Source: an uncultured Methylobacillus sp.
GTDB lineage: Bacteria; Pseudomonadota; Gammaproteobacteria; Burkholderiales; Methylophilaceae
Assembly (NCBI GenBank): GCA_946478865.1
Contig: CAMLDO010000011.1
Location: 1 to 64,000 of the forward strand
Reading direction: 5' to 3'
Length of the DNA: 64,000 bases
Of the stretch, positions 16,487-33,563 are shown piece by piece. How positions within the stretch are numbered: the stretch's first letter is position 1; each line of letters opens with the position of its first letter. The position numbers and the translations under genes are program-made. Under the pieces are notes generated by a model that did not search any database, was not told the origin of the DNA, and saw only the letters and a list, made by a program, of their open reading frames with translations.

Positions 16487-16948
16487 CTACACCACGAACT
16501 GCTGGTGATTGACCGACACGTCTTTCCCTTCGATCAGTAGTTCCGCCGCAGCGATCGGCAAGGAAAACCGGCGCGGTCCCGCGCTGCCGGGATTTACGTA
16601 AAGCACTTCACCGTGATGATGGACGTCAGGCTTGTGGGAATGGCCGGAAACGACCACGCGAATGCCCATCTGGCTAGGGTCGATGGCGAGTTGCGTCAGA
16701 TCATGCAGGACATAAATGCCGATTTCGCCAAAGCGTATTGTCGCGGTTTCGCCGAGTTTTTCCGCCCACTCGCCATGATCGTTATTGCCGCGAACGGCAA
16801 GGACCGGGGCTATCGTGGATAACGTCTCGATAATACGGGGGTCGCAGATGTCCCCAGCGTGCAGGATATGATCGCAGCCGCGCAAAAAATCCAGCACCTG
16901 CGGCCGCATCAAACCATGAGTGTCGGAAATCAGTCCGATACGCAGCAC
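16487..16948 (-). CDS. YfcE/MJ0936-family metallophosphoesterase
   Basis: A 153-residue calcineurin-fold phosphodiesterase. The metal ligands are visible in order: ISDTHG (Asp9, His11), HAGDICD (Asp33), VRGNND, and VVSGHSHKP near the end. Homologues such as E. coli YfcE split phosphodiesters in vitro, with no firm physiological substrate. It begins 9 bp after the GT9 gene and is the last gene of the likely glycan operon, so an envelope phosphodiester substrate is possible but not shown. Confidence 0.88.
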   Translation of the reverse strand: MLRIGLISDTHGLMRPQVLDFLRGCDHILHAGDICDPRIIETLSTIAPVLAVRGNNDHGEWAEKLGETATIRFGEIGIYVLHDLTQLAIDPSQMGIRVVVSGHSHKPDVHHHGEVLYVNPGSAGPRRFSLPIAAAELLIEGKDVSVNHQQFVV

Positions 16949-16957
16949 ATCTCCCCC

Positions 16958-18067
16958 TTACACCTCTATCGCTTTTGTCCTCATCGGCTTTTCGCGCCCG
17001 GCCAATAATTCCCGGATCGCCTCCATTACCGTCTGCGGCTCCAGTTGCTCCAGACAGGCATGATGCCCTTGCGGACACACGCTTTTGTAACAGTAGCGGC
17101 ATGGTACATCGTGGTAAAGCACGCGATGCTCGACCTGCCAGGGAGTATGTTGGGGGTTGGTAAGCGCATACAGATCCACAACCGGCGTGCCCACGGCCGC
17201 TGCGATATGAGCCGGACCGGTATTGTTGGAGATGATGAGCGTTGCCAGCCTGATGATGGCAGCCAGCTGACCTAGGTCGAGCGCGCCCGCGAAGGAATGC
17301 GCCGGCACGCCGGACTCGGCCATGATATCGGCGATCATCGCCGCCTCGTCGGCATCGCCCGTAAGAATAACGGGCAGGCCGATCTCCTCATGAACCTGCC
17401 GTACCAGCTGCACCCAGTGCCGCGGCGGATAACGGCGTGAAGCAGCGCTAGCGCCGGGATGCATCAATAGCCAGGGCTGGCTTGGTTCGACACCGCACTG
17501 GGCGAGCAATACCCTGACTTCCGTCAGCGCCGCCGAAGGCACATGGAACGAAAGCCGCTCATCAGCGGCTCGGCAACCCACTGCTGAAACCAGATCGAGC
17601 TGTCTCTGTACCTCATGCCGCACGCCTTGTCCGGGATCGAGATCAGTCTCAGGCAGCCAGTCGGTAAGCAGGTCATAGGGATTCTCGCGGCAATGTGCAA
17701 TGCGTAGAGGAATCCCGGCCAGGTAGCACAGCAAGGCTGCTGGCAGTGGGCTTTGGGTATAGGTGGTAAAAATCACCGCCGCATCGAAGGCGCGCTCACG
17801 CAGTTGCTCTACCATCTCCAACTGGTAGGCCGCGCCGTGTACCGCACCGTGCTTCATCCATGGCGGGCGGTAGATGATGCTATCGTCCACCTCGGGGATG
17901 AAGCGAGCAACGGCTGCGCCTATGCCGGAAGTCAACAAAGTCAGCGTTCGGCCAGCCTGTTCCTCACGCAATGCCCGCATGGCCGGAGTACACATCAGCA
18001 CGTCGCCGAGCGTATCGAGGCGTACGCAGAGTATGCGTTGCGCCCGGCTCCAATCAGCCGCGTTCAT
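16958..18067 (-). CDS. Glycosyltransferase family 9 (heptosyltransferase-like)
   Basis: A 369-residue GT-B enzyme. The N-terminal ILCVRLDTLGDVLMCTPAMRAL segment (quoted in part) and the C-terminal nucleotide-sugar motif NNTGPAHIAAAVGTPVVDLY mark the ADP-heptose:LPS heptosyltransferase family. A cysteine-rich insert HDVPCRYCYKSVCPQGHHACLEQL, typical of GT9 proteins outside the LPS inner core, may bind metal. The start overlaps the stop of the HAD phosphatase gene (ATGA), and pairing with a GmhB-like enzyme supports a heptose-type donor. Confidence 0.92.
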   Translation of the reverse strand: MNAADWSRAQRILCVRLDTLGDVLMCTPAMRALREEQAGRTLTLLTSGIGAAVARFIPEVDDSIIYRPPWMKHGAVHGAAYQLEMVEQLRERAFDAAVIFTTYTQSPLPAALLCYLAGIPLRIAHCRENPYDLLTDWLPETDLDPGQGVRHEVQRQLDLVSAVGCRAADERLSFHVPSAALTEVRVLLAQCGVEPSQPWLLMHPGASAASRRYPPRHWVQLVRQVHEEIGLPVILTGDADEAAMIADIMAESGVPAHSFAGALDLGQLAAIIRLATLIISNNTGPAHIAAAVGTPVVDLYALTNPQHTPWQVEHRVLYHDVPCRYCYKSVCPQGHHACLEQLEPQTVMEAIRELLAGREKPMRTKAIEV

Positions 18068-18645
18068 GCCTCTTCCGCCAGCCGCGCGTGTTCGGATGCG
18101 ATTTGCCGGGCGGCGCCGAGCAAATCTTCAGCCACCAGTTCAGGCATGCGCAACGGCGTCATCAGCCATTCCGTTTCGTTGCCATTGTCGACCAGAACCG
18201 CACGGCAACCCGCGCGATGCCCGGCTTCCACATCGTTGAGAATATCACCCACCATCCAGGAAGCCCCCAGATCGATCGCATGCTCGTCGGCGGCCTGTTG
18301 CAGCAGGCCGGGCTGGGGCTTGCGGCAATCGCAGTCGAGCGCATACCCCTCCACCTCGCCTTGCGGATGATGCGGGCAGAAATAATACCCTTCGATATCG
18401 ATGTCATATGGTTCCAGCAGGTAATCCAGCCGCTCCCAGACAGCATCGAGCTCACGTTCGGCAAACTTGCCGCGTGCGATGCCGGATTGATTGCTCACCA
18501 CCACCAGCAGGTACCCCAGCTGGGCGAACAGCTGGAGCCCTTCGATGGCATGCGGGTTGAACCGGATGAGCGCCGGATCGACGTTGTACGGCACGTCCTC
18601 GATCAACGTGCCGTCCTTGTCGAGAAAGACCGCCTTCCTCAGCAT
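18064..18645 (-). CDS. HAD-IIIA phosphatase, GmhB-like (D,D-heptose 1,7-bisphosphate phosphatase family)
   Basis: A 193-residue HAD hydrolase with the nucleophile motif FLDKDGTL, the VVSNQSGIARG motif II and the late MVGDILNDVEAG motif. The CPHHPQGEVEGY and CDCRKPQPGLL segments provide the zinc-loop cysteines and histidine of GmhB. GmhB removes the C7 phosphate from heptose bisphosphate in ADP-heptose synthesis. ATG 18645 has GGAGG 5 bp upstream; ATG 18657 overlaps the SDR stop but lacks such a site. The other heptose genes (gmhA, hldE, hldD) are not in this window. Confidence 0.9.
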   Translation of the reverse strand: MLRKAVFLDKDGTLIEDVPYNVDPALIRFNPHAIEGLQLFAQLGYLLVVVSNQSGIARGKFAERELDAVWERLDYLLEPYDIDIEGYYFCPHHPQGEVEGYALDCDCRKPQPGLLQQAADEHAIDLGASWMVGDILNDVEAGHRAGCRAVLVDNGNETEWLMTPLRMPELVAEDLLGAARQIASEHARLAEEA

Positions 18646-18656
18646 GCGTGCCTCCA

Positions 18657-19415
18657 TCAGGGCCAGGAGGTCTCCTGCATCGGGAGTATGGTGATTTCCG
18701 CGATCACCGAGGGCTGGATAAGCACCGAAACCACCCCACGCGCAGCGTCGAGTGGATCTTGAAGTTTGGAAGCGTCGATATCGGGGAAGCGGTCCAGCAG
18801 GAAAGGCGTACGCATCCCGCCGATCACCACGCCGGTAACCTTGATGTTGTGCGGGCGCAATTCTGAATGCATCGCGTGCGAGAAGCCGAGCAGGCCCCAC
18901 TTGCTCGCATGGTAGGCCGATGCGTTGGGCCAGGCACGCTTGGCGGCGGTGGAGGAAATATTGATGATATGGCCGGAACCGGCCTTTTTCATGACGTCCG
19001 CCGCGTACTTGGTCATGAAGAACGGGCCGTTGAGATTGGTATTGATCACGCGCAGCCAATCGTCGTTGCTCAGTTCATCGATCGGCAGCGTCTTGTCCGT
19101 GCCGGCGTTGTTGATAAGGACGTCCAGCTTGCCGAATTTCTCGACGGATTCCTGGATCGCCTGCTCCGCGGCTTGCGGATCGCCAACATCGAAGCCGATG
19201 GAATGGAAGCGGCCGCCGCCTTTGAGCGTCTCCATGTGAGCGCTCGCTTTCTCGGGACGTATGTCGCCGACAATCACGTCCGCGCCTGACTCGGCCAATA
19301 TCTGGCAAATGGCAGCACCGAGACCGCTGCCGCCTCCGGTAACGAAGACCACCTTGCCGGCGAGACCGGGGATATGTTGCAGGGCATCGTTTTCTTGCGT
19401 TTGCATCATGTTCAT
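18657..19415 (-). CDS. Short-chain dehydrogenase/reductase
   Basis: A 252-residue Rossmann-fold oxidoreductase. The cofactor motif is TGGGSGLG (about 26-33), NNAG lies near 105, and the catalytic Ser (ISSTAAKRAW) and YHASK (Tyr near 169) are intact. Asp in VGDIRPEK at the end of beta-2 suggests NAD rather than NADP preference. Its place between a GT4 gene (9 bp gap) and a GmhB-like gene suggests it modifies a sugar precursor, though SDRs in such clusters can act on many substrates. Confidence 0.88.
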   Translation of the reverse strand: MNMMQTQENDALQHIPGLAGKVVFVTGGGSGLGAAICQILAESGADVIVGDIRPEKASAHMETLKGGGRFHSIGFDVGDPQAAEQAIQESVEKFGKLDVLINNAGTDKTLPIDELSNDDWLRVINTNLNGPFFMTKYAADVMKKAGSGHIINISSTAAKRAWPNASAYHASKWGLLGFSHAMHSELRPHNIKVTGVVIGGMRTPFLLDRFPDIDASKLQDPLDAARGVVSVLIQPSVIAEITILPMQETSWP

Positions 19416-19424
19416 CGTGATTTC

Positions 19425-20717
19425 CTAACGTGTGGTGAGTTGATGGATGGGTGCCGCAGTCAGTCCGTTTTGTGCCACGACCGGCAGGAGATCGACTTCG
19501 CGCGCGGCTGCAACTTTTTCGTAAATAGTGACGACGCGTTCGGCCACGCTGTGCCAGGTGTAGAGCTTGTGCGCGCGGCGCCAGCCTTCGCGGCCAAGCC
19601 GGTGCGCATGGTCGGGATCGTTGTGCAGCAACGCAAGACGCTCGGCGAGCGCCTCTGGGTTCTTGGGCGGCACCAGGTAGCCGGTCACGCCCTCCTGCAC
19701 CGTGGTCTTGATGCCGCCCACGGCCGCGCCGATCACCGGGGTACCGCACGCCATGGCTTCCAGCGGCGTGATGCCGAACGGCTCATACCACGGCGTGGTG
19801 ACGAACACATCCGCGGCACTGTAGTAATAGGCGAGTTTCGAACGCGGCTGCTGGCCAGTGAAGTGCACTTGGTCCTGTATATCGAGCAAGTAGGTGAGCG
19901 CTCGCAAACGCGCCATTTCAGGCGCGTCGGTATCCGGATGGCCACCCACCACCAGCAGTTTGGCGAGAATGCCGAAGCGCTCGCGTAGCAACGCGAGGCT
20001 TTCGATCACGTTGTCCACGCCTTTGCGCGGCACCATGCGCCCGAGTTGCAACAGGATGAAATCCTCGGGAGCCAATCCGAGTTTGTTGCGGGCAATGTCA
20101 TGCGCCGGCCATAGCTCTTGCGGATCGAAGCCGCATGGCACGATTTCGATGCGGTCGCGACTTGCGCCATAGTGCCGCTCCATATCGAGCCTGTCTTGCG
20201 GGCATTCGGCGATGATGACGTCGGCGTCCTGCATGAGGCGCTGTTCGATGAGCAGCCGCTCCGCAGGGAAGCGGTCGGCCTCGCCCTGGGATTGCCGGCG
20301 CACCATGCCGAGTGCGTGAAAGGTGACGACATAGGGAATCTCCAGTGCGTCGCGCACGCGCTGGGCGACCAGGCCGGACATGAAGAAATTCGCATGCAGC
20401 AGATCGTAGGGGGCAGGCTCCGCCTCGGCGAAGTCGATCATGAAGCGCGCGAAGTCGTCCATCCACGGCAACATCTGCTCCTTGGGCACGAAGCTGGGCG
20501 GCCCCGCGGGGACATGAATGACGCGCACGTTGTCCACCCAGGGCTGAATTTCCTCCAACGCCGGGCTGTCGCGCCGGGTAAAAACATCAACCTCATAGCC
20601 GAGGCGCGCGAGTTCGACGGCAAGGTGCGCCACATACACGTTCTGACCGCCGCAATCGATGCTACCCGGGCTAGCCAGCGGGGAAGCGTGTTCGCTTATC
20701 AGGGCAATTTTCAGCAT
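19425..20717 (-). CDS. Glycosyltransferase family 4 (sucrose-phosphate-synthase-like GT1 domain)
   Basis: A 430-residue GT-B enzyme. The N-terminal ISEHASPLASPGSIDCGGQNVYVAHLA pattern (glycine-rich GGQNVYV) is typical of sucrose-synthase-like GT4 members, and the C-terminal domain has LLQLGRMVPRKGVDNVIES and the donor motif PWYEPFGITPLEAMACGTPVIG (quoted in part) with EPFG..LEAM. ATG 20717 was chosen: GGAGG lies 8 bp upstream, whereas ATG 20732 contains that site. It is predicted to transfer a sugar from a nucleotide donor to a membrane-linked or small acceptor; the specific sugars are not readable. Confidence 0.9.
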   Translation of the reverse strand: MLKIALISEHASPLASPGSIDCGGQNVYVAHLAVELARLGYEVDVFTRRDSPALEEIQPWVDNVRVIHVPAGPPSFVPKEQMLPWMDDFARFMIDFAEAEPAPYDLLHANFFMSGLVAQRVRDALEIPYVVTFHALGMVRRQSQGEADRFPAERLLIEQRLMQDADVIIAECPQDRLDMERHYGASRDRIEIVPCGFDPQELWPAHDIARNKLGLAPEDFILLQLGRMVPRKGVDNVIESLALLRERFGILAKLLVVGGHPDTDAPEMARLRALTYLLDIQDQVHFTGQQPRSKLAYYYSAADVFVTTPWYEPFGITPLEAMACGTPVIGAAVGGIKTTVQEGVTGYLVPPKNPEALAERLALLHNDPDHAHRLGREGWRRAHKLYTWHSVAERVVTIYEKVAAAREVDLLPVVAQNGLTAAPIHQLTTR

Positions 20718-20761
20718 GGACCTATCCTCCATTTATTCACGGTGTTATCGGGGAGCGAGCG

Positions 20762-21256
20762 TCATGCCTGCCCCAGCCATGGTTTTCCGGCCTGCTCGGC
20801 CGCGCCCTTCTTCGCCAGCGCAAACAGGAATAGCGCAATGGAGCCGGCAAACGCTTCGTCGTACCACGGGTCGGCACCGCTCACGGCGACGACAAGACCG
20901 TCGCGCACGATGCCGCCCCAGAGCAGCGAATCGTCCTGAGCCAGCAGGTGCGGATGCGATTGCTGCACGAGCCGGGTATCCAGGCCCGTGCGCCAGCTCA
21001 ACTCGGCCTTGGAACGTGCGAACGCCCCGTAATCGGCGTCCCACTTCGCCGTATCGCCGACGGCATGTTCGTAAAGGATGGAATCGGAAAAACCACCGGT
21101 CGCAGGCGACGACCCGGGCTTGAGGATGACGATGTAGAGAAAACCGCTGGCGCCGGCGACGCGGCTATCCATGGCGGCAGTAATGGTGGGAAGGCACAGC
21201 TCGACGGCTTGTTTGGCCGTATTCTGGTCGAGGAAATAGCTGGTAAAGCCCGGCAT
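20762..21256 (-). CDS. Small protein, possibly GlcG/HbpS-like, in a glycan operon
   Basis: I do not recognise this 164-residue protein with certainty. The pattern SKAELSWRTGLDTRLVQQSHPHLL, then LWGGIVRDGLVVAVSGADPWYDE, resembles the way GlcG/HbpS (haem-degrading-protein-like) domains place AK...S.RTG, GGI...G.VVGA(V)GVSG and a C-terminal helix. No signal peptide or haem motif is clear, although His-containing segments exist. It sits between two GT4 genes, 44 bp before one and 64 bp after the other, so it is co-transcribed. Its role there is open. Confidence 0.6.
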   Translation of the reverse strand: MPGFTSYFLDQNTAKQAVELCLPTITAAMDSRVAGASGFLYIVILKPGSSPATGGFSDSILYEHAVGDTAKWDADYGAFARSKAELSWRTGLDTRLVQQSHPHLLAQDDSLLWGGIVRDGLVVAVSGADPWYDEAFAGSIALFLFALAKKGAAEQAGKPWLGQA

Positions 21257-21320
21257 GGAATACTCCCGTTCATGGTGCTGTCATCGTGGAACCCCTCCAG
21301 AATGGAAAAAGAAAAGCCGT

Positions 21321-22289
21321 CTAGACGGCGCTGTAGCGCGGTGCGCTGATGCCGGTGGCTTCGGCGAACACCGCATTCCAGTCTGCGACGAAGCGCTCGA
21401 TATTGAAGCGCTCCAGCGCGCGCTGCCGCCCCTGTTCCCCGAGCCGTCGTGCCAGCTTGGGATCGCGCAGCAGGAGCTGCATGCGCTCGATCAATGTCGT
21501 TATATTGGTATCGGCAAATCCATTGCGGCCGTTCTCGATCACCGTGGCCATCTCCGTAGTGGCAAGTGCCACCACAGGAATGCCAGCCATCATGGCTTCG
21601 ATCACTGCAAGCCCGAGGCTGGTGTAGCGGATCGGATTGAAAAAGAACCGGTAGTCCGCTGCAAAACTGGCGAGCTGTCCATGCAGCACCTCGCCAAGGC
21701 CGCCGTCAGCCTCGGTGCCCATTCCCACCAGATCGAGCGGCACGTGCTGCCGGACCTGCCGGAAAATATCGCCGCCGAGGCGTCTTCCGCGTTTGCCAAT
21801 ATTATTGATGACCACAACGCCGCGCTCCCGTTCCCCACGATATTGCACTTGCGGCGCGACAACCCCATGCTCAACCACACGCACCGGCGTACTGCCGCTA
21901 TCCCACATGAGCGCATTGAAATGGGTCACGTGCACCAGCAGCGTGTCGGTATCGTCTACCGGGTGTTTCATGTCGGTGGGATGCTCACGCGGGGTATCGT
22001 GCTCGATATAAATCCGAGGCAGGCGGCGTTGCGCCGGGCTCAGGTATTCGAACTGGTCGTGCAAATACTGATGGTCGTCCTGGAACAGGATGCAGTCGAA
22101 CTGCTGTTTCGCGATATCCTCGACCGGCATGTCGAATACATTGTCGCCCCACGGCAGGTGCCCGCAGCGCCCGCCATAGCCGGGCGGCCGGCCCTCCTTT
22201 GCGACGACATGGAAATTGTGCGGGGCCTGCGTAAGGTAGAGCAGATAACTGCCGTGCGTATGCCAGGTAAGGATATTCAGGGGCCGCAT
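21321..22289 (-). CDS. Glycosyltransferase family 4
   Basis: A 322-residue GT-B enzyme, shorter than typical GT4. The start MRPLNILTWHTHGSYL and the motif IEHDTPREHPTDMKHPVDD describe the acceptor half. The donor half carries RYTSLGLAVIEAMMAGIPVVAL (E..A...G.P) and a helical C-terminus. Many GT4 proteins of this type act in capsule or exopolysaccharide assembly. It lies 40 bp downstream of the ABC exporter gene, in the same direction, and is the second gene of the presumed eight-gene operon. Confidence 0.88.
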   Translation of the reverse strand: MRPLNILTWHTHGSYLLYLTQAPHNFHVVAKEGRPPGYGGRCGHLPWGDNVFDMPVEDIAKQQFDCILFQDDHQYLHDQFEYLSPAQRRLPRIYIEHDTPREHPTDMKHPVDDTDTLLVHVTHFNALMWDSGSTPVRVVEHGVVAPQVQYRGERERGVVVINNIGKRGRRLGGDIFRQVRQHVPLDLVGMGTEADGGLGEVLHGQLASFAADYRFFFNPIRYTSLGLAVIEAMMAGIPVVALATTEMATVIENGRNGFADTNITTLIERMQLLLRDPKLARRLGEQGRQRALERFNIERFVADWNAVFAEATGISAPRYSAV

Positions 22290-22329
22290 GCGGTTCCTTT
22301 CTCGTCATAACCCCGGAATAGTGGTCGCG

Positions 22330-24177
22330 CTAGGGCGTGGAGGGAGGCATGGTCGCACTGACGGCGTCGCTCTCCTTGTCCATGCGCTGCTGCAGCAGCC
22401 ACAACTGTGAGTATATGCCGCGCAGCTTCATCAATTCGGTGTGGCTGCCGCGCTCGACGATACGGCCGCGGTCCAGCACCATGATTTCGTCGGCATCCAC
22501 GATGGTGGATAGCCGGTGTGCAATGATGAGAGTGGTCCGGTTGACGGAAAGTTTGTTCAGTTCGCGCTGAATTGCGCTTTCCGAGTTGGAATCGAGCGCG
22601 GACGTGGCTTCGTCGAAGATCAGGATAGGCGGGTTCTTGAGCATTGCGCGCGCCACGGCAATACGCTGGCGCTCGCCGCCCGAGAGCTTGACACCGCGCT
22701 CGCCTACCAGCGTCTCGTAGCCTTCGGGCTGCGACTGGATGAAATCGTGGATATGCGCGGCTTTCGACACCGCCACGATCTCGTCCATACCCGCCCCAAC
22801 CCGACCGTAGCCGATGTTGTAGGCGATGGTTTCGTTGAACAGGATGGTGTCCTGCGGCACCACGCCGATCGCTCGCCGCAGAGAATCGGTACGCACTTGC
22901 GCAATATCCTGCCCGTCCACCAGCACGCGGCCCTGGATGGGGTCGTACAGGCGCAGCAACAGTCGCGCCAGGGTGGACTTGCCCGAGCCGCTGCCGCCTA
23001 CTACCGCGAGCGTCTTCCCCGGCGGGATGCGAAAACTCACGTCATGCAGAATGGGCCGCTCCGGCTCGTAATGGAAATTCACATGCTCGAACACCACCTC
23101 GCCGCCTTCCACCTTGAGCGGCGGCAGCGAGGGCGGCTGGGCGATCTCGGGCTGCAACCGCAGCAGCGTGAACAAGCGCTCCACGTTGACCCAGGCATCG
23201 CGCACCTCGCGGTATGCAAAGCCGAGCGCATTGAGCGGCAGGCACACCTGCAGCATATAGGCGTTGATAAGCACCAGGTCGCCCACCGTCATGGTGTTGC
23301 GCCACACCTCGTAGCCCGCAAGCAGCATGACAGACCCCAGCCCCAGCGCAATGATCGCGCTCTGCCCCACGTGCAGGATGAACAGCGCTTTCTGGTTGCG
23401 CACTGCGGCTTCGGCCCAGTGGCCCATAGTGCCCTTGAAGCGCTCGGCTTCGAGTTTTTCGTTGGCGAAGAATTTGATGTTGTCGGCATTGATGAGGCTG
23501 TCCGCGAGATGGCTCTTGGCCTGCGAGTCCAGCTTGATCACCCGCCGCTGAAAGATCGCACGCCGGTTGGTGAAATACAACGTGAACGCGGAATAGGTAA
23601 CGAAGGTGACCGCGATGAGCGCCGCATACCAGCCGTTATAGCGCGCGAGCATGATGGACAGCACCATGCCGATCTCGACCAGGATGGGCACCAGCGTGAA
23701 CAGCCCCGTGCCAAGCAGGAAGGCGATGCCTGCGGTACCGCGGTCGATGTCCGGCAACAGTCCGCCCGTGCGCCGCGTGGAGTGAAAGCGCGCGCCCAGC
23801 GAATGCAGGTGGGCGAAGGTTTTTTCCGCGTAGGTCGCTACCGTGGTCTGTGCAACGCGCGAAAACAGCAGGTCGCGCAACTCGTTGAACAGCGTGCTCG
23901 AGAAGCGCACGAGCGCATACGCCACCAGCAGCCATAGCGGCCACATCGCGAGCTGCTCGGGACGCGACAGGTCGTCGATGATACGTTTGAGGATGAGCGG
24001 CACTACCACCGTCGCCACCTTGGCGAGCAGCAGAAACGCCGTCGCAATTACGATACGCCAGCGATAAGCCGCGAGCAGTTGCCACAAATCGTAGGCGATA
24101 TCGCCCGGACGCGGGCGCAGCCGATGGCGCCACCAGGGAGAGGCCGAGGTTTGCAGAGCTTGGTTGCCGTGTTGCAT
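22330..24177 (-). CDS. Fused-permease ABC exporter (ATM1/HMT1-type)
   Basis: A 615-residue half-transporter. The transmembrane domain (about 30-330) is of ABC-type-I exporter form. The nucleotide-binding domain follows with VVGGSGSGKST (Walker A, about 392-401), LSGGERQRIAVARA (signature), ILIFDEATSALDS (Walker B) and AHRLSTI (H-loop). It looks like the mitochondrial ATM1 class exporting glutathione- or persulfide-type compounds, but beside glycosyltransferases it could also export lipid-linked material. It is the first gene of the minus-strand glycan set and diverges from a GT9 gene. Confidence 0.9.
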   Translation of the reverse strand: MQHGNQALQTSASPWWRHRLRPRPGDIAYDLWQLLAAYRWRIVIATAFLLLAKVATVVVPLILKRIIDDLSRPEQLAMWPLWLLVAYALVRFSSTLFNELRDLLFSRVAQTTVATYAEKTFAHLHSLGARFHSTRRTGGLLPDIDRGTAGIAFLLGTGLFTLVPILVEIGMVLSIMLARYNGWYAALIAVTFVTYSAFTLYFTNRRAIFQRRVIKLDSQAKSHLADSLINADNIKFFANEKLEAERFKGTMGHWAEAAVRNQKALFILHVGQSAIIALGLGSVMLLAGYEVWRNTMTVGDLVLINAYMLQVCLPLNALGFAYREVRDAWVNVERLFTLLRLQPEIAQPPSLPPLKVEGGEVVFEHVNFHYEPERPILHDVSFRIPPGKTLAVVGGSGSGKSTLARLLLRLYDPIQGRVLVDGQDIAQVRTDSLRRAIGVVPQDTILFNETIAYNIGYGRVGAGMDEIVAVSKAAHIHDFIQSQPEGYETLVGERGVKLSGGERQRIAVARAMLKNPPILIFDEATSALDSNSESAIQRELNKLSVNRTTLIIAHRLSTIVDADEIMVLDRGRIVERGSHTELMKLRGIYSQLWLLQQRMDKESDAVSATMPPSTP

Positions 24178-24431
24178 GGAGACTCCTAGAACCCCGTGTC
24201 AGTAGTATCCATATTCGCGCTGCGGCCTGAGTGCCCGGTGATCGGACTGCCATGTCGGAACTATTTTTTTGCAGCGAGGTTCAGACTTGAGCAGGCGGTG
24301 GTGGACAGATGTCCCTGGCCCGGTAACGGCTACAGTCATCGCGCCGGGCCATGGTAAAAAGTTTCAGGTGTGACACGCATCTCTTCGCGCCGGTTCATCC
24401 GGCCGCCATTCCGCACTACTCAGGAGTCCCT
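24178..24431. other. Divergent intergenic gap, no gene or firm site seen
   Basis: The 254-bp gap between the ABC exporter and the plus-strand GT9 gene is of ordinary composition. I found no strong promoter boxes, hairpin with T-run or repeat. Confidence 0.4.
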
Positions 24432-25454
24432 ATGCCACCCGTTCAGCTGTTGCAACGCTCTGATATTGCCTCCGTCGTCGTGTTTCGTGCCTTGCAGGTG
24501 GGCGACATGCTCTGTGCCGTGCCGGCGCTGCGTGCCTTGCGCGCCGCATTGCCGCAGGCGCGCATTACCTTGGTCAGCCTACCGTGGGCGGCCCAGTTTG
24601 CGAGCCGCTTCGATGCTTATATCGATGAGTTCGTCCCCTTCCCCGGCCATCCACGCCTGCCGGAGATTCCCGTCCAGCGCGAAAAACTACCCGGTTTCTA
24701 CGAGGACATGCGTAGCCGGCACTTCTCGCTCGCGCTGCAATTGCACGGCAGCGGCGAGATCAGCAACGGCGTAGTCGCGGAATTCGGGGCTGAGCGCATC
24801 GCAGGCTATGCACCCGCCGATTCCAGCCAGTGGGACGGTCTTCATTTCTTTCCCTACCCCGACAGCGGCCCCGAACCGTTGCGCCTGCTCGGCTTGCTGC
24901 GGCAGCTGGGAGCGCCGGAGTCCGGTACGCATCTCGAATTCCCGCTCACGCCGCTCGACTGGGCGGAGCTGGAACAAAGCGGGCTGGGCAAAGGTCTGGT
25001 AGCGAACAACTATGTCTGCATCCACCCCGGCGCACGCTTCCGCGACAAATGCTGGCCGCCGCAGCGCTTCGCACAAATCGCGGACCGCATCGCACTGGAG
25101 TTCGGGCTCACTATCGTCATTACCGGTTCCGGCCAGGAATACGATCTCGCGCAAGCCGTCATGGATTGCATGACGACCGAGGCGATCAACGCTGCCGCCC
25201 CGATTTCGCTAGGCGCCATGGCTGCGCTCATGAGCCGTGCCCGCCTGCTGGTATGCAACGACACCGGCGTCTCGCATATCGCCGCCGGGCTCAAGTTGCC
25301 GAGCGTGGTGATCTTCAACAAGGCCGACATGGAGCGCTGGGCCCCGCTCGACCATCATCTGCACCGGACTCTCTGGGATCCGGCGGCGGAAGGCCTGGAG
25401 GAAGCCTGGGCGATGGCGCGCACCCTGCTTTCCAGTGGCGCTCAAGTCACCTGA
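24432..25454 (+). CDS. Glycosyltransferase family 9
   Basis: A 340-residue heptosyltransferase-like GT-B enzyme. It begins VVVFRALQVGDMLCAVPALRALRAALPQA (in part) with the GD...A.PALR motif. The donor half shows HPGARFRDKCWPPQRF and CNDTGVSHIAAGLKLPSVVIF. ATG 24432 has CAGGAG 5 bp upstream; an upstream in-frame start at 24351 has none. It is the only plus-strand gene here and ends 13 bp inside the tail of another GT9 gene on the other strand. The sugar is not known; a heptose fits the GmhB-like gene nearby. Confidence 0.9.
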   Translation: MPPVQLLQRSDIASVVVFRALQVGDMLCAVPALRALRAALPQARITLVSLPWAAQFASRFDAYIDEFVPFPGHPRLPEIPVQREKLPGFYEDMRSRHFSLALQLHGSGEISNGVVAEFGAERIAGYAPADSSQWDGLHFFPYPDSGPEPLRLLGLLRQLGAPESGTHLEFPLTPLDWAELEQSGLGKGLVANNYVCIHPGARFRDKCWPPQRFAQIADRIALEFGLTIVITGSGQEYDLAQAVMDCMTTEAINAAAPISLGAMAALMSRARLLVCNDTGVSHIAAGLKLPSVVIFNKADMERWAPLDHHLHRTLWDPAAEGLEEAWAMARTLLSSGAQVT

Positions 25455-26512
25455 GCGTAGAGCTCCAGCGCGAGCGCCATCACCTCCTCGGTCGTCACGT
25501 CATCGACGAAGCACACATCGTGCGGGCAGCGCGACTTGCGGTTGTCCTGTCCGCAAACCGGGCAATGCGTCTGCGTCGACATGGCGGCGCGCAGCAAGGC
25601 CGGCCGCAGCGGGCTCGCCTCCAGCACGTTGGTCAACCAGTAAATGCCGACAGCGGGCGTATTCAGCGCAAAGGCGAGGTGGATCGGCCCGGTATCGTTA
25701 GACACCAGCATCACGGCCCGATCGAGCATTCCGCAGAGACCGGAGAGTGACATGCGCCCGGTAAAGTCGAGCACCGGATGACGCATGTGCTTGCCTATGG
25801 TTTCCGCGAGATGCGCTTCGGCGGCGGTCGCGCTGATCATAATGGTGGCACCGCGGCTCGCGAGCGCATCGCCCACCTCGGCAAAGCGCTCGGCCGGCCA
25901 GTGACGCCTTACATCGCTCGCACCCGGATGCAGAATCACGATGCGCTCGCCCGGCACAGGCGGCAGTAGCCGAGCCGCTTCCTCGCGATCGCGCGCGACC
26001 ACTTCGATTTCCCGTTCCAGCAGCGGCGGTACAGCCCCGACAAGCGCGGCTACCTGCAGCAGCTCCAGTCGCCGATTGACGAAGGCGCCGTACGGCAGCC
26101 AGCGATCGAGCGGAGCCGCGTCTGGAGTCTTGAGGCCGATGGTGAGCCTGGCGCCGAGTTGATTGATGTAGGAGTTGGAATAGCGGCCGCCGCCATACAT
26201 CTGGATCGCGAGGTCGAACTCCTTCGCACGCATGCGTTCGATGAACGCCTGTCCTTCTTCATCCGGAAGTGCCTCCGGCGGCGCGCCCACTCCAGGTACG
26301 GGAGGCATGATGACGACTTCATCCACGGGAGCTGGGCGATCTTTTAAAAACTCCGCATGCCACGGCTTGCCGAGAAAAACGATACGCGCTTCGGGATAAG
26401 TGTGACGCAGTGCATGCAGCGCAGGCAGCGCGAATACGAAATCGCCGACGGCATTGGGGCGTAATACCAGAATCTTGCGAATGCCGGGTTCGACCGGATA
26501 CGCAATCCTCAC
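25442..26512 (-). CDS. Glycosyltransferase family 9
   Basis: The third GT9 gene in this region: 356 residues, N-terminus ILVLRPNAVGDFVFALPALHAL (in part), donor half VILHPGASDVRRHWPAERFAEVG and SNDTGPIHLAFALNTPAVGIYWL. A late Cys cluster, HCPVCGQDNRKSRCPHDVCF, resembles that of the GT9 at 17 kb. GTG 26512 overlaps the stop of the upstream GT2 gene (GTGA), so translation is coupled; the longer upstream frame is an artefact of GT2 in another frame. Its last 13 bases overlap the GT9 gene on the plus strand. Confidence 0.88.
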   Translation of the reverse strand: MRIAYPVEPGIRKILVLRPNAVGDFVFALPALHALRHTYPEARIVFLGKPWHAEFLKDRPAPVDEVVIMPPVPGVGAPPEALPDEEGQAFIERMRAKEFDLAIQMYGGGRYSNSYINQLGARLTIGLKTPDAAPLDRWLPYGAFVNRRLELLQVAALVGAVPPLLEREIEVVARDREEAARLLPPVPGERIVILHPGASDVRRHWPAERFAEVGDALASRGATIMISATAAEAHLAETIGKHMRHPVLDFTGRMSLSGLCGMLDRAVMLVSNDTGPIHLAFALNTPAVGIYWLTNVLEASPLRPALLRAAMSTQTHCPVCGQDNRKSRCPHDVCFVDDVTTEEVMALALELYAQVT

Positions 26513-27363
26513 GGCATCCCCGCCGGGGCTGCCTGTGTCAGTACCTCTGTCTGCGGCGGCGACCAGAGGAGGTAAGGAGCATCGACCCGCCTTTCCTTCA
26601 CCGTCGTCGGCAATTCCATGTGATAGGCGCCCGAAGGAATGATGCCGCAGCCGCCGAAACGCTGCATCACGCGCAGTTGGGCCAGCACGTCCTCGCCGCA
26701 GTGATCCGCTGGCAGTTGCGACCAGAAATCGAAACCGCCTGCTTCGCGCAGCTTGGCCGTATCGAACAGCACGCAACCGCCTATCCAGGCCACGCGATAC
26801 AGCCGCGTTTGCTGCGATGTAAGCCCCAGCTTCTGCTGGACATGGTAGAGATTGGCAGCGCTGTGCAAATGATGACGGCCCCAGGCCGGCGTATCCGGCG
26901 CGATATGCTCCGGCGCGACCGGCCCCTCCCAGAACTCGATATTCTGCTGATGCGGGCGCACATCCTCGCTATAACTCAGCCCGTGCAACGCGCTGCCGAC
27001 GAAGCCGCACCGCTGTTCGTAGATTGCGCCCAACAGCCGTTCGACCAAGTCGTTTTCCAGCAGCACGTCGTCATCCAGAAACAGGCAATACGGCGCAGTG
27101 ACTTGCGACAGAAGAAAGGCACGCTGTTCCGCCATGCCGAGTCGCGGCAGGTGATGATGTGTGTCGACCCTATGGCCAATAGCGCGCAGGAAGCGCAGCG
27201 CGGCCTGTATCTCGGGCAGACAGAGCACTCCTTCGCCATCCGACTGATCCGAAATCACGATGCGCAATTCCGGGACCGTCTGCGCCGCCAGCGAAGCCAG
27301 TGTCATCGCCAGTGCGCCGGAGCGATTGCAGGTCGGCACGAGAACATCGACTGGCGTGCTCAT
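26509..27363 (-). CDS. Glycosyltransferase family 2
   Basis: A 284-residue GT-A enzyme. It opens VDVLVPTCNRSGALAMTLASL, has the metal-binding LDDD motif in APYCLFLDDDVLLENDLV (about 99-102), and a late GEDVLAQLRVMQRFG region (ED) like the catalytic-base motif. It should add a sugar from a nucleotide donor to a growing glycan. It overlaps DUF4254 upstream (ATGA) and the GT9 gene downstream (GTGA), so the three are one tightly coupled unit. Confidence 0.9.
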   Translation of the reverse strand: MSTPVDVLVPTCNRSGALAMTLASLAAQTVPELRIVISDQSDGEGVLCLPEIQAALRFLRAIGHRVDTHHHLPRLGMAEQRAFLLSQVTAPYCLFLDDDVLLENDLVERLLGAIYEQRCGFVGSALHGLSYSEDVRPHQQNIEFWEGPVAPEHIAPDTPAWGRHHLHSAANLYHVQQKLGLTSQQTRLYRVAWIGGCVLFDTAKLREAGGFDFWSQLPADHCGEDVLAQLRVMQRFGGCGIIPSGAYHMELPTTVKERRVDAPYLLWSPPQTEVLTQAAPAGMP

Positions 27364-27980
27364 CGCGTACCCTGGCGGGTGGCAGTCTGCGCAGCATAAA
27401 GATAAGGATTCAAGGCAGGATCGTTGTACATCTTGAACTGGCGATAGACCTTGAAATAGGCCTTCCCTTCTTTTGCTTCACGCAATAGCCGGTCGAGGCA
27501 GGATGCGAGATCCTGCCGTTGCAACGTGAGCCGTTCCAGCTTGGCGCGGCATGCTTCGATGTGATCGGGCGCAGCGTCCTTGCGCTCGGTCTGCTCGAGC
27601 ATGTGCTGGATCTTGAGCGCGAGGATGGAAAGCCGATCTATCATCGCGCCGGCCGTCTCGCTGTTGAGACGAGCGTCGGCGGTATGTGGCGTATCCATGA
27701 GCTCGCTCAGGATCGCCTCATCCAGCGCCTCGACGGCATCGTTGCGCTTCTGGTTGTACTGGTCGATCAAACGCTTGCTGGCTGCGATTTCGGCAGAATC
27801 GACGTCGGTACGGCGCGCCTTGTCCTCCTCGTCCCAGAGCAGGCTGTTGTACTGGTGATTGGCGGCCACCCAGCGCCACGGATCCGGTCCTTCGGGGCCT
27901 GGATGTGGCTGCGGCATGGCTTCCTGGAGTGCACGATCGTGATATTCGATAATCGATTTTGCGGTCAATTCGCTCAACAT
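27360..27980 (-). CDS. DUF4254 domain protein
   Basis: A 206-residue, mostly helical, cytoplasmic protein of the uncharacterised DUF4254 family. Recognisable segments are IIEYHDRAL, WRWVAANHQYNSLLWDEEDKARR (in part), and LNSETAGAMIDRLSILALKIQHM. Genes of this family are commonly found beside glycosyltransferases; that is known only by context. ATG 27980 has GGGAG 6 bp upstream and is preferred over ATG 27995, which overlaps that site. It leads the DUF4254-GT2-GT9 unit. Confidence 0.87.
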   Translation of the reverse strand: MLSELTAKSIIEYHDRALQEAMPQPHPGPEGPDPWRWVAANHQYNSLLWDEEDKARRTDVDSAEIAASKRLIDQYNQKRNDAVEALDEAILSELMDTPHTADARLNSETAGAMIDRLSILALKIQHMLEQTERKDAAPDHIEACRAKLERLTLQRQDLASCLDRLLREAKEGKAYFKVYRQFKMYNDPALNPYLYAAQTATRQGTR

Positions 27981-28191
27981 TTCGGTCTCCCTCATGCGTC
28001 GGTATCAACCAATAATGATGGCTTCGCGCATCGAGAAGTTCCTCCTGCCGAGCTTGCTCCCGCACTTCATCAGGGAACCGGCGGAGCAGAAATGTTGCAG
28101 TTTTCTTGAAGCGTCCGGGCTTAAGTGCTAGGCTTCCAAGCCAATAAAACTCTAACAATAATCAAGGCTTGACTGCTTATAAGGGGTAGGA

Positions 28192-30783
28192 ATGCAAGGC
28201 ATATCCGCATTGTTCACGCTGATGGATCCGGCGCCCATGGCGACGCTTTTCGAAGGTGCGGCCGGCATACTTTATCTCTACGCACTGGCAGACTTCCTCA
28301 TCCTGCTTTCCTGTTACGCCATCCCTCTCGCGTTCGCCTATTTCGTCTGGCACCGCAAGGATTTGCAGCATCGCTGGATATTCCTCGTTTTCAGCATCTT
28401 CATCCTGTCGTATGGCATGTCGCATCTGCTTTCGCTCGTGCTGCTGTGGAAACCCATCTATCACTATCATCTGGCAATGAAAATCCTCACCGCGCTGGTT
28501 TCGGCAGGAACCGCGTACATGGTATTTCGCATCATTCCGCATGCGCTCAAGATCCCCAATCCCACCAAGCTTGCGGCCGAAGTCGAGGCGGAAATCCAGG
28601 AGCGTCGCGAAGCATTTGTCGCGCTGAAAACGACGGAAATTTCGCTGCGCGAATCGCGCGAACAATTGCGCAAGGCCAACATGGAGCTGGAAGCGCGTGT
28701 GCAATCGCGCACCGAGGAACTCGGGCGTCAGACCGCAGTGCTGCGCCGCATCATCGACTCCATTCCCGACTTCATCATTCTCAAGGATACGAACAGCGCC
28801 TACCTCGGCAGCAACAAGGCGTTCGAGGAATTCACGGGCAAGTCCGAACAGGATCAAATCGGCAAAACCGACTACGACCTGTTCGACTCCAACCTCGCCG
28901 TGACCTTCCGCAGTCTGGATCGACAGATTCTGGAAACCGGCCAGACTCATAGCCAGGAAGAATGGGTCACTTACCCGGATGGACGGCAAGCCCTGCTCAG
29001 TACGGTCAAGACCCCGTTCTATGGCCCTAATGGCGAAATTCTCGGCCTGGTCGGCATCAGCCGCGACATTACCGACCGCGTGGCTGCGGAAAATTCGCTG
29101 CGGCAGGCCGCGACCGTGTTCGAAAGCACGCGCGAAGGCGTGATGATCACCGATGCGGACAAGTACATCTTCATGATCAACCGTGCCTTCACCGAGATGC
29201 TGGGTTACACCGAGGAGGAGGTGCTGGGGCGTTCCACCGACATCCTGCAATCGCCGCGCCACGACAAGGAATTCTTCCGCCGCATGTGGACGGAAATCAA
29301 GACCGTCGGCCACTGGCAGGGCGAAGTCTGGAACCGCCGCAAGGACGGATCGGAGTTCCCGCAACTGCTCAGCATCAGCGCGGTAAAGGACAACGAGGGC
29401 AAAGTCACGCAGTACGTCAGCGTGTTCACGGATATTTCCAAGATCAAGGAAACCGAAGCCGAACTGGAATTCCTCGCCCATCACGACCCGCTCACGCGCC
29501 TGCCCAACCGTCGGCTGTTACTTGCGCGTATTCGTCATGGCATCGAAACCGTAAAACGCGATGGCGGTTTGCTGGCCCTCCTCATGCTCGACCTCGACCG
29601 CTTCAAGGACGTCAACGACAGCTTCGGCCACGCCACGGGCGACGAACTGCTGCAACAGGTCGCCGACCGCCTCACCAAACGGCTGCGTACGGTGGATACG
29701 CTGACGCGCCTGGGCGGCGACGAATTCACCGTTCTGCTGCAAGGCATCACCCACAAGGAAGATGCCGGGCGCGTAGCGAGCGAGATCGTCGCCATGCTGG
29801 GCGAGCCATGGTTCCTGTCCAATGGTTTCGAAGTACGTATCGGCTCCAGTGTCGGTATCACGCTCTATCCGGACCACTGCAATACCGCCGAGGAAATGCT
29901 GCAGCAGGCCGACACCGCGCTGTATCAGGCCAAGGAAGAAGGCCGGGGGCGCTTCAAATACTTCAGCGAGGATCTCACCCAGGCCGCGCGCGAGCGGATC
30001 GCGCTGGAAGCCGCGCTACGTCGCGCCATCACCGAAAACGAGCTGCGGGTGTATTACCAGCCGCAGGTGGATATCGCTACCGGCAAAATAGTGGGCGCCG
30101 AAGCGCTGCTGCGTTGGCAGCACCCCGAAGACGGCATGATGCTGCCCAGCAAATATATTGCCGTGGCGGAAGAAACCGGGCTGATCGGCGCCATTGGCGA
30201 CTGGGTGCTAAAGCAGACCTGCCTGCAGGGCAAGAAATGGCTGGACGCCGGATTCAAACCGATCACCCTGGCCGTCAACCTGTCACCGCAGCAATTCCAT
30301 CACAAGGATATTGCGGCTACGGTAGCCAGCACACTGGAGGAAACAGGTTTCCCGCCCGAACTGCTGGAACTGGAGCTGACCGAGACCATCCTGATCAAGC
30401 GCGAACATGATGCCGTCGCAAAGATGGATATCCTGCGCCAGCAAGGAATTCGCCTCGCCATCGACGATTTCGGTACCGGCTACTCGTCATTGTCCTATCT
30501 CAAGCGCTTCCCGCTCGACGTGCTCAAGATCGACAAGAGTTTCGTGGATGAGATTCCGGATCAGCGCGACGACATGGAAATTGCCAATACCGTCATTGCC
30601 ATAGGCCACACGCTGGGCTTCAAGGTGCTGGCCGAAGGGGTGGAAACCGAGGATCAGCTGGCGTTCCTGAGCAAGCAAGGCTGCGACCTGTATCAAGGCT
30701 ATCTGAAGAGCCCGCCTTTGCCGTCCGAAGAATTCGAGAAGCTGCTGGCGAACGAATCGACCTCCCACGCCCAGGCTGCCTGA
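28192..30783 (+). CDS. Ethylene-receptor-like sensor with PAS-PAS-GGDEF-EAL (c-di-GMP turnover)
   Basis: An 863-residue membrane sensor. Residues 28-120 hold three membrane helices that align, ungapped with an offset of 9, to the ethylene-binding domain of ETR1 (Asp34=Asp25, Pro45=Pro36, Arg61-Trp62=Arg52-Trp53, His78=His69), but residue 74 is Tyr where ETR1 has the copper ligand Cys65. A coiled coil (about 130-185), two PAS domains (about 185-300 and 305-425), a GGDEF domain (from about 431; GGDEF 508-512, RxxD inhibitory site RTVD five residues before) and an EAL domain (EAL at 637-639, DDFGTGYSSLSYL, NLSPQQF) follow. Both enzyme motifs look intact, so it could make and break c-di-GMP. The ligand is unknown. 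Confidence 0.93.
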   Translation: MQGISALFTLMDPAPMATLFEGAAGILYLYALADFLILLSCYAIPLAFAYFVWHRKDLQHRWIFLVFSIFILSYGMSHLLSLVLLWKPIYHYHLAMKILTALVSAGTAYMVFRIIPHALKIPNPTKLAAEVEAEIQERREAFVALKTTEISLRESREQLRKANMELEARVQSRTEELGRQTAVLRRIIDSIPDFIILKDTNSAYLGSNKAFEEFTGKSEQDQIGKTDYDLFDSNLAVTFRSLDRQILETGQTHSQEEWVTYPDGRQALLSTVKTPFYGPNGEILGLVGISRDITDRVAAENSLRQAATVFESTREGVMITDADKYIFMINRAFTEMLGYTEEEVLGRSTDILQSPRHDKEFFRRMWTEIKTVGHWQGEVWNRRKDGSEFPQLLSISAVKDNEGKVTQYVSVFTDISKIKETEAELEFLAHHDPLTRLPNRRLLLARIRHGIETVKRDGGLLALLMLDLDRFKDVNDSFGHATGDELLQQVADRLTKRLRTVDTLTRLGGDEFTVLLQGITHKEDAGRVASEIVAMLGEPWFLSNGFEVRIGSSVGITLYPDHCNTAEEMLQQADTALYQAKEEGRGRFKYFSEDLTQAARERIALEAALRRAITENELRVYYQPQVDIATGKIVGAEALLRWQHPEDGMMLPSKYIAVAEETGLIGAIGDWVLKQTCLQGKKWLDAGFKPITLAVNLSPQQFHHKDIAATVASTLEETGFPPELLELELTETILIKREHDAVAKMDILRQQGIRLAIDDFGTGYSSLSYLKRFPLDVLKIDKSFVDEIPDQRDDMEIANTVIAIGHTLGFKVLAEGVETEDQLAFLSKQGCDLYQGYLKSPPLPSEEFEKLLANESTSHAQAA

Positions 30784-30842: not shown

Positions 30843-33563
<2,721 letters not shown>

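What the first reader, a model, noticed from the sequence alone, without database searches (positions are those of the whole stretch)
28192..28560. Natural Cys-to-Tyr change at the copper site of an ethylene-receptor-like sensor
The membrane sensor of the PAS-PAS-GGDEF-EAL protein aligns to Arabidopsis ETR1 without a gap at an offset of 9: Asp34, Pro45, Tyr50-Phe51, Arg61-Trp62 and His78 match Asp25, Pro36, Tyr41-Phe42, Arg52-Trp53 and His69. At residue 74 the codon is TAT (Tyr) where ETR1 has Cys65, the Cu(I) ligand. The same change (C65Y) is the classic etr1-1 mutation that abolishes ethylene binding. Moreover residue 41 is Cys where ETR1 has Tyr32, so Cys and Tyr appear exchanged between two helices. 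Either the domain lost ethylene/copper binding and senses something else, or the thiol was moved to another helix facing the same pocket. The ETR1 alignment is from memory.
Basis: partly seen in the sequence, partly recalled or inferred. Interest (0 to 1): 0.72.

Follow-up and report, generated by a model that had tools for sequence, protein, structure and literature searches.

The report
Ethylene-type sensor with relocated cysteine
A group of bacterial membrane sensors, one of them from a Methylobacillus, has the plant ethylene-receptor fold, but the cysteine that normally holds copper sits on the facing helix, having swapped places with an aromatic residue, which suggests a rebuilt gas-sensing site that controls the messenger c-di-GMP.

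Summary
The 863-aa protein has a Pfam ETR1_N domain (E 1.5e-26) and aligns without a gap to AzoEtr1, a bacterial ethylene receptor: Tyr74 faces its copper-ligand Cys, Cys41 its pocket Tyr. Of 229 distinct domains read, 18 have Cys41, Tyr/Phe74 and His78; the other 211 have Tyr41 and Cys74. With the trait columns left out, the 18 form one clade (100/100). Cys41 is the only sensor cysteine in 18 of 18 proteins. Modelled helices put Cys41 and Tyr74 at equal depth; in a published LeETR2 model both equivalents touch ethylene (PMC8879215, passages). Best reading: the thiol hopped from TM2 to TM1 and, with His78, still holds a soft metal, probably Cu(I); output is a GGDEF-EAL c-di-GMP module. Metal and ethylene binding are inferred, not shown. 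Against: Asp34 is replaced in 6 of 18, the N-terminal His/Cys motif is absent from all 18, and the pocket is not significantly more conserved than other columns (P 0.104). A new metal-free sensor remains a strong rival.

The parts
28192..30783 (+). 863-aa membrane sensor protein: ETR1_N, two PAS, GGDEF, EAL
   Evidence: ORF; Pfam hits
28261..28353 (+). transmembrane helix 1, residues 24-54
   Evidence: AlphaFold2 monomer and DSSP, mean pLDDT 90.0; transmembrane nature by homology
28372..28443 (+). transmembrane helix 2, residues 61-84
   Evidence: AlphaFold2 and DSSP
28459..28548 (+). transmembrane helix 3, residues 90-119
   Evidence: AlphaFold2 and DSSP
28291..28293 (+). Asp34 (AtETR1 Asp25); D in 12, H in 5, N in 1 of 18 variant domains
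28312..28314 (+). Cys41 (TGT; AtETR1 Tyr32): the relocated and only sensor cysteine, 18 of 18 variants; Tyr in 211 of 211 canonical
28369..28371 (+). His60 (AtETR1 position 51 by the same offset), 18 of 18 variants; Phe or Tyr in 199 of 204 canonical
28411..28413 (+). Tyr74 (TAT; AtETR1 Cys65): Tyr 15, Phe 3 of 18 variants; Cys in 211 of 211 canonical
28423..28425 (+). His78 (AtETR1 His69), the retained copper-ligand position, 18 of 18 variants
28480..28482 (+). Lys97 (AtETR1 Lys91, proposed partner of Asp25); K in 14 of 18 variants
   Evidence: PMC11819568 passages
28756..29082 (+). PAS domain 1, residues 189-297
   Evidence: Pfam PAS_4
29113..29436 (+). PAS domain 2, residues 308-415
   Evidence: Pfam PAS
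29476..29949 (+). GGDEF domain, residues 429-586, with GGDEF motif and RxxD motif
   Evidence: Pfam; motif scan
30010..30717 (+). EAL domain, residues 607-842, with EALLR and DDFGTG motifs
   Evidence: Pfam; motif scan
30843..33563 (-). secA-like neighbour (family name recalled, not scanned); the sensor gene lies beside its counterpart also in Methylobacillus sp. MM3
   Evidence: 90.5% identity over 909 aa to the L001 counterpart

Best explanation
This is a derived, fixed subfamily of the ETR1-type membrane sensor. In one ancestor the thiol of the metal site moved from TM2 (AtETR1 position 65) to the facing position of TM1 (AtETR1 position 32), and an aromatic residue took its old place. The retained TM2 His78 and the new TM1 Cys41 then most likely hold a soft metal, probably Cu(I), between two helices instead of on one, and a small gas (ethylene or another ligand that binds Cu(I)) shifts TM1 against TM2. 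The movement passes through TM3 and the linker to the PAS-PAS-GGDEF-EAL module and changes c-di-GMP. Shown: the swap, its fixation in one clade, its position in the domain, and the intact output motifs. Inferred: metal binding, the ligand, the helix movement and the direction of the output.
For: Exchange without exception in what was read: 18 of 18 variants C41 with Y/F74 and H78; 211 of 211 others Y41 with C74. Among the columns filled enough to compare, 41 and 74 are the only two with no residue shared between the classes. One clade at 100/100 with columns 16, 19, 41, 60 and 74 left out. Cys41 is the only sensor Cys in 18 of 18 proteins, and it never drifted while neighbouring columns did. 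Depth: Cys41 is 13 residues above the cytosolic end of TM1, Tyr74 13 above the start of TM2, His78 17 (helices); an idealised hairpin gives 4 to 10 A between points 41 and 78 over the nine settings tried (feasibility only, since the helices were turned to face each other by assumption). In the published LeETR2 AlphaFold/MD model the equivalents of positions 41, 71, 74 and 78 all touch ethylene (PMC8879215, passages). Pocket residues Ile44 18 of 18, Pro45 17 of 18, Phe70 18 of 18 are kept. The sensor (24-121) is under purifying selection, dN/dS about 0.1. GGDEF and RxxD motifs in 17 of 17 full-length proteins. In Azospirillum ethylene lowers c-di-GMP (PMC11819568, passages).
Against: No binding data. 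Asp34, which sets affinity in ETR1, is His or Asn in 6 of 18 variants, and Lys97 is changed in 4 of 18. The N-terminal His16 and Cys19 of canonical domains (each in 200 of 204) are absent from all 18. The seven pocket columns are not significantly more conserved in the variants than random columns (P 0.104), whereas in canonical domains they are (0 of 20,000 draws). The sensor changes faster than the rest (dN/dS 0.105 against 0.027-0.063), and residues 1-23 faster still (dN 0.53, dS saturated). The clade's stem is long (0.49). All this rests on one evolutionary event. The models are monomers and gave no coordinates, so the Cys41-His78 distance was not measured.
Confidence: 0.48

Rival explanations
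1. Copper and ethylene binding were lost and the same three-helix scaffold was re-used for another signal, for example a thiol-reactive or hydrophobic small molecule detected by Cys41 and His78 without metal. In a methylotroph a carbon-one metabolite would be a natural guess, but nothing here points to a particular ligand.
For: Loss of Cys65 (here Tyr, as in etr1-1) together with loss of the N-terminal His/Cys motif in 18 of 18 and replacement of Asp34 in 6 and Lys97 in 4 of 18; long stem branch 0.49; faster-evolving sensor and pocket conservation not above that of other columns.
Against: His78 stays in 18 of 18, and the new Cys stands at the one TM1 position that holds the invariant pocket Tyr in the other 211, at the depth of position 74; Ile44, Pro45 and Phe70 are kept.
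Confidence: 0.36
2. The sensor is a locked or degenerate membrane anchor: like etr1-1 it cannot bind ligand, and regulation comes from the PAS domains alone.
For: Position 74 is the residue of the etr1-1 lesion; the PAS region is much more conserved than the sensor between window and MM3 (dN/dS 0.027 against 0.105).
Against: dN/dS of the sensor is still about 0.1; 32 of 98 sensor columns are invariant in the 18 variants, among them Cys41, His60 and His78, which a mere anchor would not need.
Confidence: 0.13
3. Sequencing error or misalignment.
For: None found.
Against: Same residues in 17 other proteins and in MM3 with the same codons; gapless alignment to AzoEtr1.
Confidence: 0.01

Closest known systems
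AzoEtr1 of Azospirillum brasilense (L129), canonical bacterial ethylene receptor
   Same: Three-helix ETR1_N domain, gapless alignment at 40% identity; Asp, His and Lys of the site match.
   Different: AzoEtr1 has Tyr42 and Cys75 (C75 aligns with the copper ligand; D35A and C75A were made as predicted non-binders, PMC11819568 passages) and a histidine kinase output; here Cys41 and Tyr74 and a GGDEF-EAL output.
Canonical ETR1_N proteins of about 840 aa in genomes of MM3's family (L034, L035, L027, L039, L040) and an 835-aa protein of a Methylovulum MAG (L003/L007)
   Same: ETR1_N at the N-terminus of a protein of similar length; the linker/PAS query matches right behind the domain in all five family genomes at 39-41%; L003's protein shows PAS-, GGDEF- and EAL-like sequence by eye (not scanned).
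   Different: All six have Tyr41, Cys74 and the N-terminal PHGxC.
Arabidopsis ETR1 and its etr1-1 (C65Y) mutant
   Same: Tyr at the copper-ligand position in etr1-1; His69 equivalent kept.
   Different: etr1-1 keeps Tyr32 and gains no Cys there (recalled); the bacterial clade has the reciprocal change and lacks the N-terminal cysteine.

Membership tests
Pfam PF25487 ETR1_N | profile score over the curated cut-off | tested here: met
   92.9 bits against cut-off 27, residues 26-121
Functional ethylene receptor (copper-dependent) | Cys at AtETR1 position 65 on TM2 | tested here: not met
   Tyr74 in the window; Y/F in 18 of 18 variants
Functional ethylene receptor (copper-dependent) | His at AtETR1 position 69 | tested here: met
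   His78, 18 of 18 variants
Functional ethylene receptor (copper-dependent) | Tyr at AtETR1 position 32 | tested here: not met
   Cys41, 18 of 18 variants
Functional ethylene receptor (copper-dependent) | Asp at AtETR1 position 25 | tested here: met
   Asp34 in the window; kept in only 12 of 18 variants
Functional ethylene receptor (copper-dependent) | Ile35, Pro36, Ile62 equivalents | tested here: met
   Ile44, Pro45, Ile71 in the window; 18, 17 and 13 of 18 variants
Functional ethylene receptor (copper-dependent) | N-terminal cysteine (proposed dimer disulphide) | tested here: not met
   0 of 18 variants, 200 of 204 canonical
Functional ethylene receptor (copper-dependent) | binds Cu(I) and ethylene | not testable with these tools
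   needs protein and ligand assays
GGDEF-EAL c-di-GMP enzyme | GGDEF active-site motif, EAL motif and DDFGTG motif | tested here: met
   GGDEF, EALLR, DDFGTG in the window; GGDEF and DDFGTG in 17 of 17 full-length proteins, the EAL pattern in 16 of 17; activity not testable here

The most novel reading that the evidence does not exclude
A natural ligand hop in a membrane metal sensor: the Cu(I) thiolate crossed from TM2 to TM1, so that copper is clamped between Cys41 (TM1) and His78 (TM2) and the ligand acts directly on the packing of the two helices. This would be a second design for sensing ethylene or a like gas, and an evolutionary restraint on the helix 1 / helix 2 register that structural work on ETR1 has not settled.
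Probability: 0.4. Interest if true: 0.82.

Novelty: new variant of a known kind. Interest (0 to 1): 0.63.

Why it matters
No high-resolution structure of the ethylene-binding domain exists, and the ab initio and AlphaFold models disagree (PMC13012798, section 6 read); EPR suggested that helix 2 is displaced (PMC8982231, passages). A natural reciprocal exchange between one TM1 and one TM2 position is independent, if single, evidence that these two positions are neighbours, and it can be tested by building the swap in a known receptor. If the site still binds copper, the TM2 Cys/His pair is not the only way to make such a sensor; if it does not, this is a natural case of an ethylene-receptor scaffold turned to a new signal. 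The publication searches made here (seen as listings, with passages of the papers named) showed no description of this variant; that library lacks most subscription journals, and some central papers on bacterial ethylene receptors were not in it or not read.

Tried and rejected
Sequencing error or frameshift at the TAT codon: rejected. Another cysteine filling the site: rejected, none in the sensor. Foldseek search of solved structures: nothing useful, best E 1.5, 0 matches at E 0.001 or better. PDB sequence search: no relative at E 10 or better. Measuring the Cys41-His78 distance in the model: not possible, no coordinates are handed out; replaced by residue-depth arithmetic from DSSP and an idealised hairpin that assumes the pocket faces meet. 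Stronger conservation of the pocket than of other columns in the variants: tested, not significant (P 0.104). Wider genome sampling at phylum level: not completed. The genome-contig scan gave only 3 loci, one of them a variant.

Limits of the counts: the 229 domains are those of at least 85 aligned residues among fetched loci and listed proteins, found with a profile seeded from 18 variants and one canonical protein; shorter rows were dropped, as were rows under 95 residues for the 222. Distinct means different letters, so near-copies count apart. In one search only the best 120 of 1303 hits were listed. In one search, 32 of 187 genomes matched and the domain was read in 31 (G063, a broken copy, was not; nor was a second copy in G037). 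In one search, 73 of 151 genomes matched and only 30 loci were given. Of 17 plasmid records, 7 were fetched. Genome names behind G handles are not told; that the 187 genomes are Methylophilaceae follows from MM3 being one.

Full report
WHAT IS THERE. The ORF 28192-30783 (+) encodes 863 aa. Pfam finds ETR1_N at residues 26-121 (E 1.5e-26, 92.9 bits against a cut-off of 27), two PAS domains, GGDEF and EAL. Tyr74 is TAT at 28411-28413, Cys41 is TGT at 28312-28314. ETR1 itself was not at hand, so I used AzoEtr1 as the anchor. A plasmid record of Azospirillum brasilense holds a 525-aa ORF (L129), the length given for AzoEtr1, whose first 130 residues were shown to bind ethylene and whose D35, C75, H79 and K98 the authors equate with AtETR1 D25, C65, H69 and K91 (PMC11819568, passages). 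The window protein aligns to it without a gap over residues 3-123, 40% identity: D34-D35, C41-Y42, Y74-C75, H78-H79, K97-K98.

NOT A LONE MUTANT. A search of predicted proteins with the sensor region gave 18 proteins; 17 (P0002-P0018) share Cys41, Tyr or Phe74, His60 and His78, and the 18th (P0019) is canonical. A second search with a distant variant (P0016) added no further variant. None of the 229 has a Cys at both positions or at neither. In the 222 longer domains, and among the columns filled enough to compare, 41 and 74 are the only two with no residue shared between the classes. Next come His16 and Cys19 of the N-terminal PHGxC motif (200 of 204 canonical each; neither in any of the 18 variants), His60 (18 of 18 variants; F or Y in 199 of 204 canonical) and Phe48 (18 of 18 variants, 1 of 204 canonical). 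Cys41 is the only cysteine before residue 550 in the 17 full-length proteins; three more, in the output domains, are also kept in all 17.

ONE ORIGIN. A tree of 117 domains, with columns 16, 19, 41, 60 and 74 left out, puts the 18 variants on one branch (100/100; 100% of 200 bootstrap trees), inside a set of 35 with canonical domains from genomes of MM3's family and of the order of the Methylovulum MAG (99/97); the nearest set of 27 is weaker (94/74). The stem is 0.49 changes per column, so the swap came with much other change. The midpoint root is for drawing only, the bootstrap had not fully settled, and 117 columns are few.

WHERE. The gene lies beside the secA-like gene (name recalled) both in the window and in Methylobacillus sp. 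MM3 (L001): that neighbour is 90.5% identical, the whole sensor protein 86.6%, its sensor domain 68-69%. Methylobacillus belongs to Methylophilaceae, so the window is most likely from a relative of that genus; no whole genome is held for it. MM3 carries no other ETR1_N match. Among 187 genomes of its family 32 have ETR1_N; the domain was read in 31, and MM3 alone has the variant. A linker/PAS query found a close match only there (90%; next 43%). In 399 genomes of the order MM3 scores 1.6e-67 and the next 3.7e-34; all 26 matches were read and the other 25 are canonical at 41 and 74. In 151 genomes of the order of L003's genome the best score is 6.0e-38, and the domains read there (30 loci of the matches in 73 genomes) are canonical. 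The variant is rare among the genomes searched; the organisms behind P0002-P0018 are not told.

SHAPE. AlphaFold2 models the window domain (monomer, 74-row alignment of variants and canonical domains) with mean pLDDT 90.0 (TM1 24-54, TM2 61-84, TM3 90-119) and the closest canonical one (L007, 60 rows) with 86.5 and the same plan. Cys41 is 13 residues above the cytosolic end of TM1 and Tyr74 13 above the start of TM2; His78 is 17 and Asp34 20 above. At 1.5 A per residue (textbook) Cys41 and Tyr74 are level, His78 is about one turn and Asp34 about two turns further out. In the LeETR2 model ethylene touches Y31, F60, I61, C64 and H68, the equivalents of window positions 41, 70, 71, 74 and 78 (PMC8879215, passages). 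So the thiol appears to have crossed the TM1-TM2 interface at constant depth. An idealised hairpin gives 4 to 10 A between positions 41 and 78, depending on settings; this shows that it can be so, not that it is. No coordinates of the models are available. The arrangement of these helices is itself disputed: EPR fits the ab initio model better than AlphaFold and suggests a displaced helix 2 (PMC8982231, passages; PMC13012798, section 6), so a depth read from an AlphaFold model should be taken with care.

SELECTION. Window against MM3: dN/dS 0.105 in the sensor (24-121), 0.027-0.063 in linker, PAS, GGDEF and EAL; residues 1-23 differ most (dN 0.53, dS saturated). dS is near saturation throughout, so these are rough. 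The sensor is constrained but looser than the rest. In canonical domains the seven pocket columns (34, 41, 44, 45, 71, 74, 78) are far more conserved than random columns (0 of 20,000 draws as low); in the variants they are not significantly so (P 0.104): Asp34 (12 D, 5 H, 1 N), Ile71 (13 of 18) and Tyr74 (15 of 18) vary while Cys41, Ile44 and His78 do not. An Asn at the Asp25 site is not fatal in ETR1: it lowers affinity about 100-fold but leaves a functional receptor (PMC13012798, section 6).

HOW IT MOST LIKELY WORKS. I favour relocation with the site kept: Cys41 on TM1 and His78 on TM2 as a soft-metal pair, the aromatic ring at 74 filling the space the old thiol left, and output through PAS-PAS to a GGDEF-EAL module whose motifs are intact in 17 of 17 full-length proteins, save that one (P0015) does not match the EAL pattern. 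Only the sequence part of this is shown. The main rival, a new metal-free sensor on the old scaffold, explains the lost N-terminal motif and the relaxed Asp34 better, but does not explain why the new Cys sits exactly at the pocket Tyr and why His78 never changed. A locked or dead sensor is the least likely of the three, given the purifying selection and the strict Cys41, His60 and His78.

KNOWN AND NEW. By profile it is an ETR1_N protein. By the residues that define a copper-dependent ethylene receptor it is not a canonical member: Cys65, Tyr32 and the N-terminal Cys were tested and not met. I therefore call it a new variant of a known kind and do not name it an ethylene receptor. The literature searches made showed no report of it in the library held.

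Noticed in passing
28369-28371 (His60): His60 at the cytosolic start of TM2 is fixed in 18 of 18 variants but Phe or Tyr in 199 of 204 canonical domains; role unknown.
   Followed up: partly
28192-28257 (residues 1-22): The N-terminal PHGxC motif of canonical domains (His16 and Cys19, 200 of 204 each) is absent from all 18 variants read, so the dimer disulphide suggested for cyanobacterial receptors (PMC6682694, passages) cannot form there.
   Followed up: partly
16487-27995: About 12 kb, much of it glycan-type genes (GT9, GT1/GT4, GT2, HAD hydrolase, ABC transporter, DUF4254), lies between the cytochrome c-like gene and the sensor gene, while in Methylobacillus sp. MM3 (L001) these two are nearly adjacent: a stretch gained, lost or moved.
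   Followed up: partly
L013, L067: Two ETR1_N domains keep Tyr41 and Cys74 but have Gln or Phe in place of the copper-ligand His; L013 is on a long branch beside L009 of the same genome, which keeps the His.
   Followed up: no
genome G063, C1:1407225-1407508: An ETR1_N gene in a genome of MM3's family matches in two overlapping pieces in different frames, one with a TAA, so it looks broken.
   Followed up: no
P0015: One variant protein does not match the EAL-motif pattern (AESLLRW in its sequence), so its phosphodiesterase may differ.
   Followed up: no
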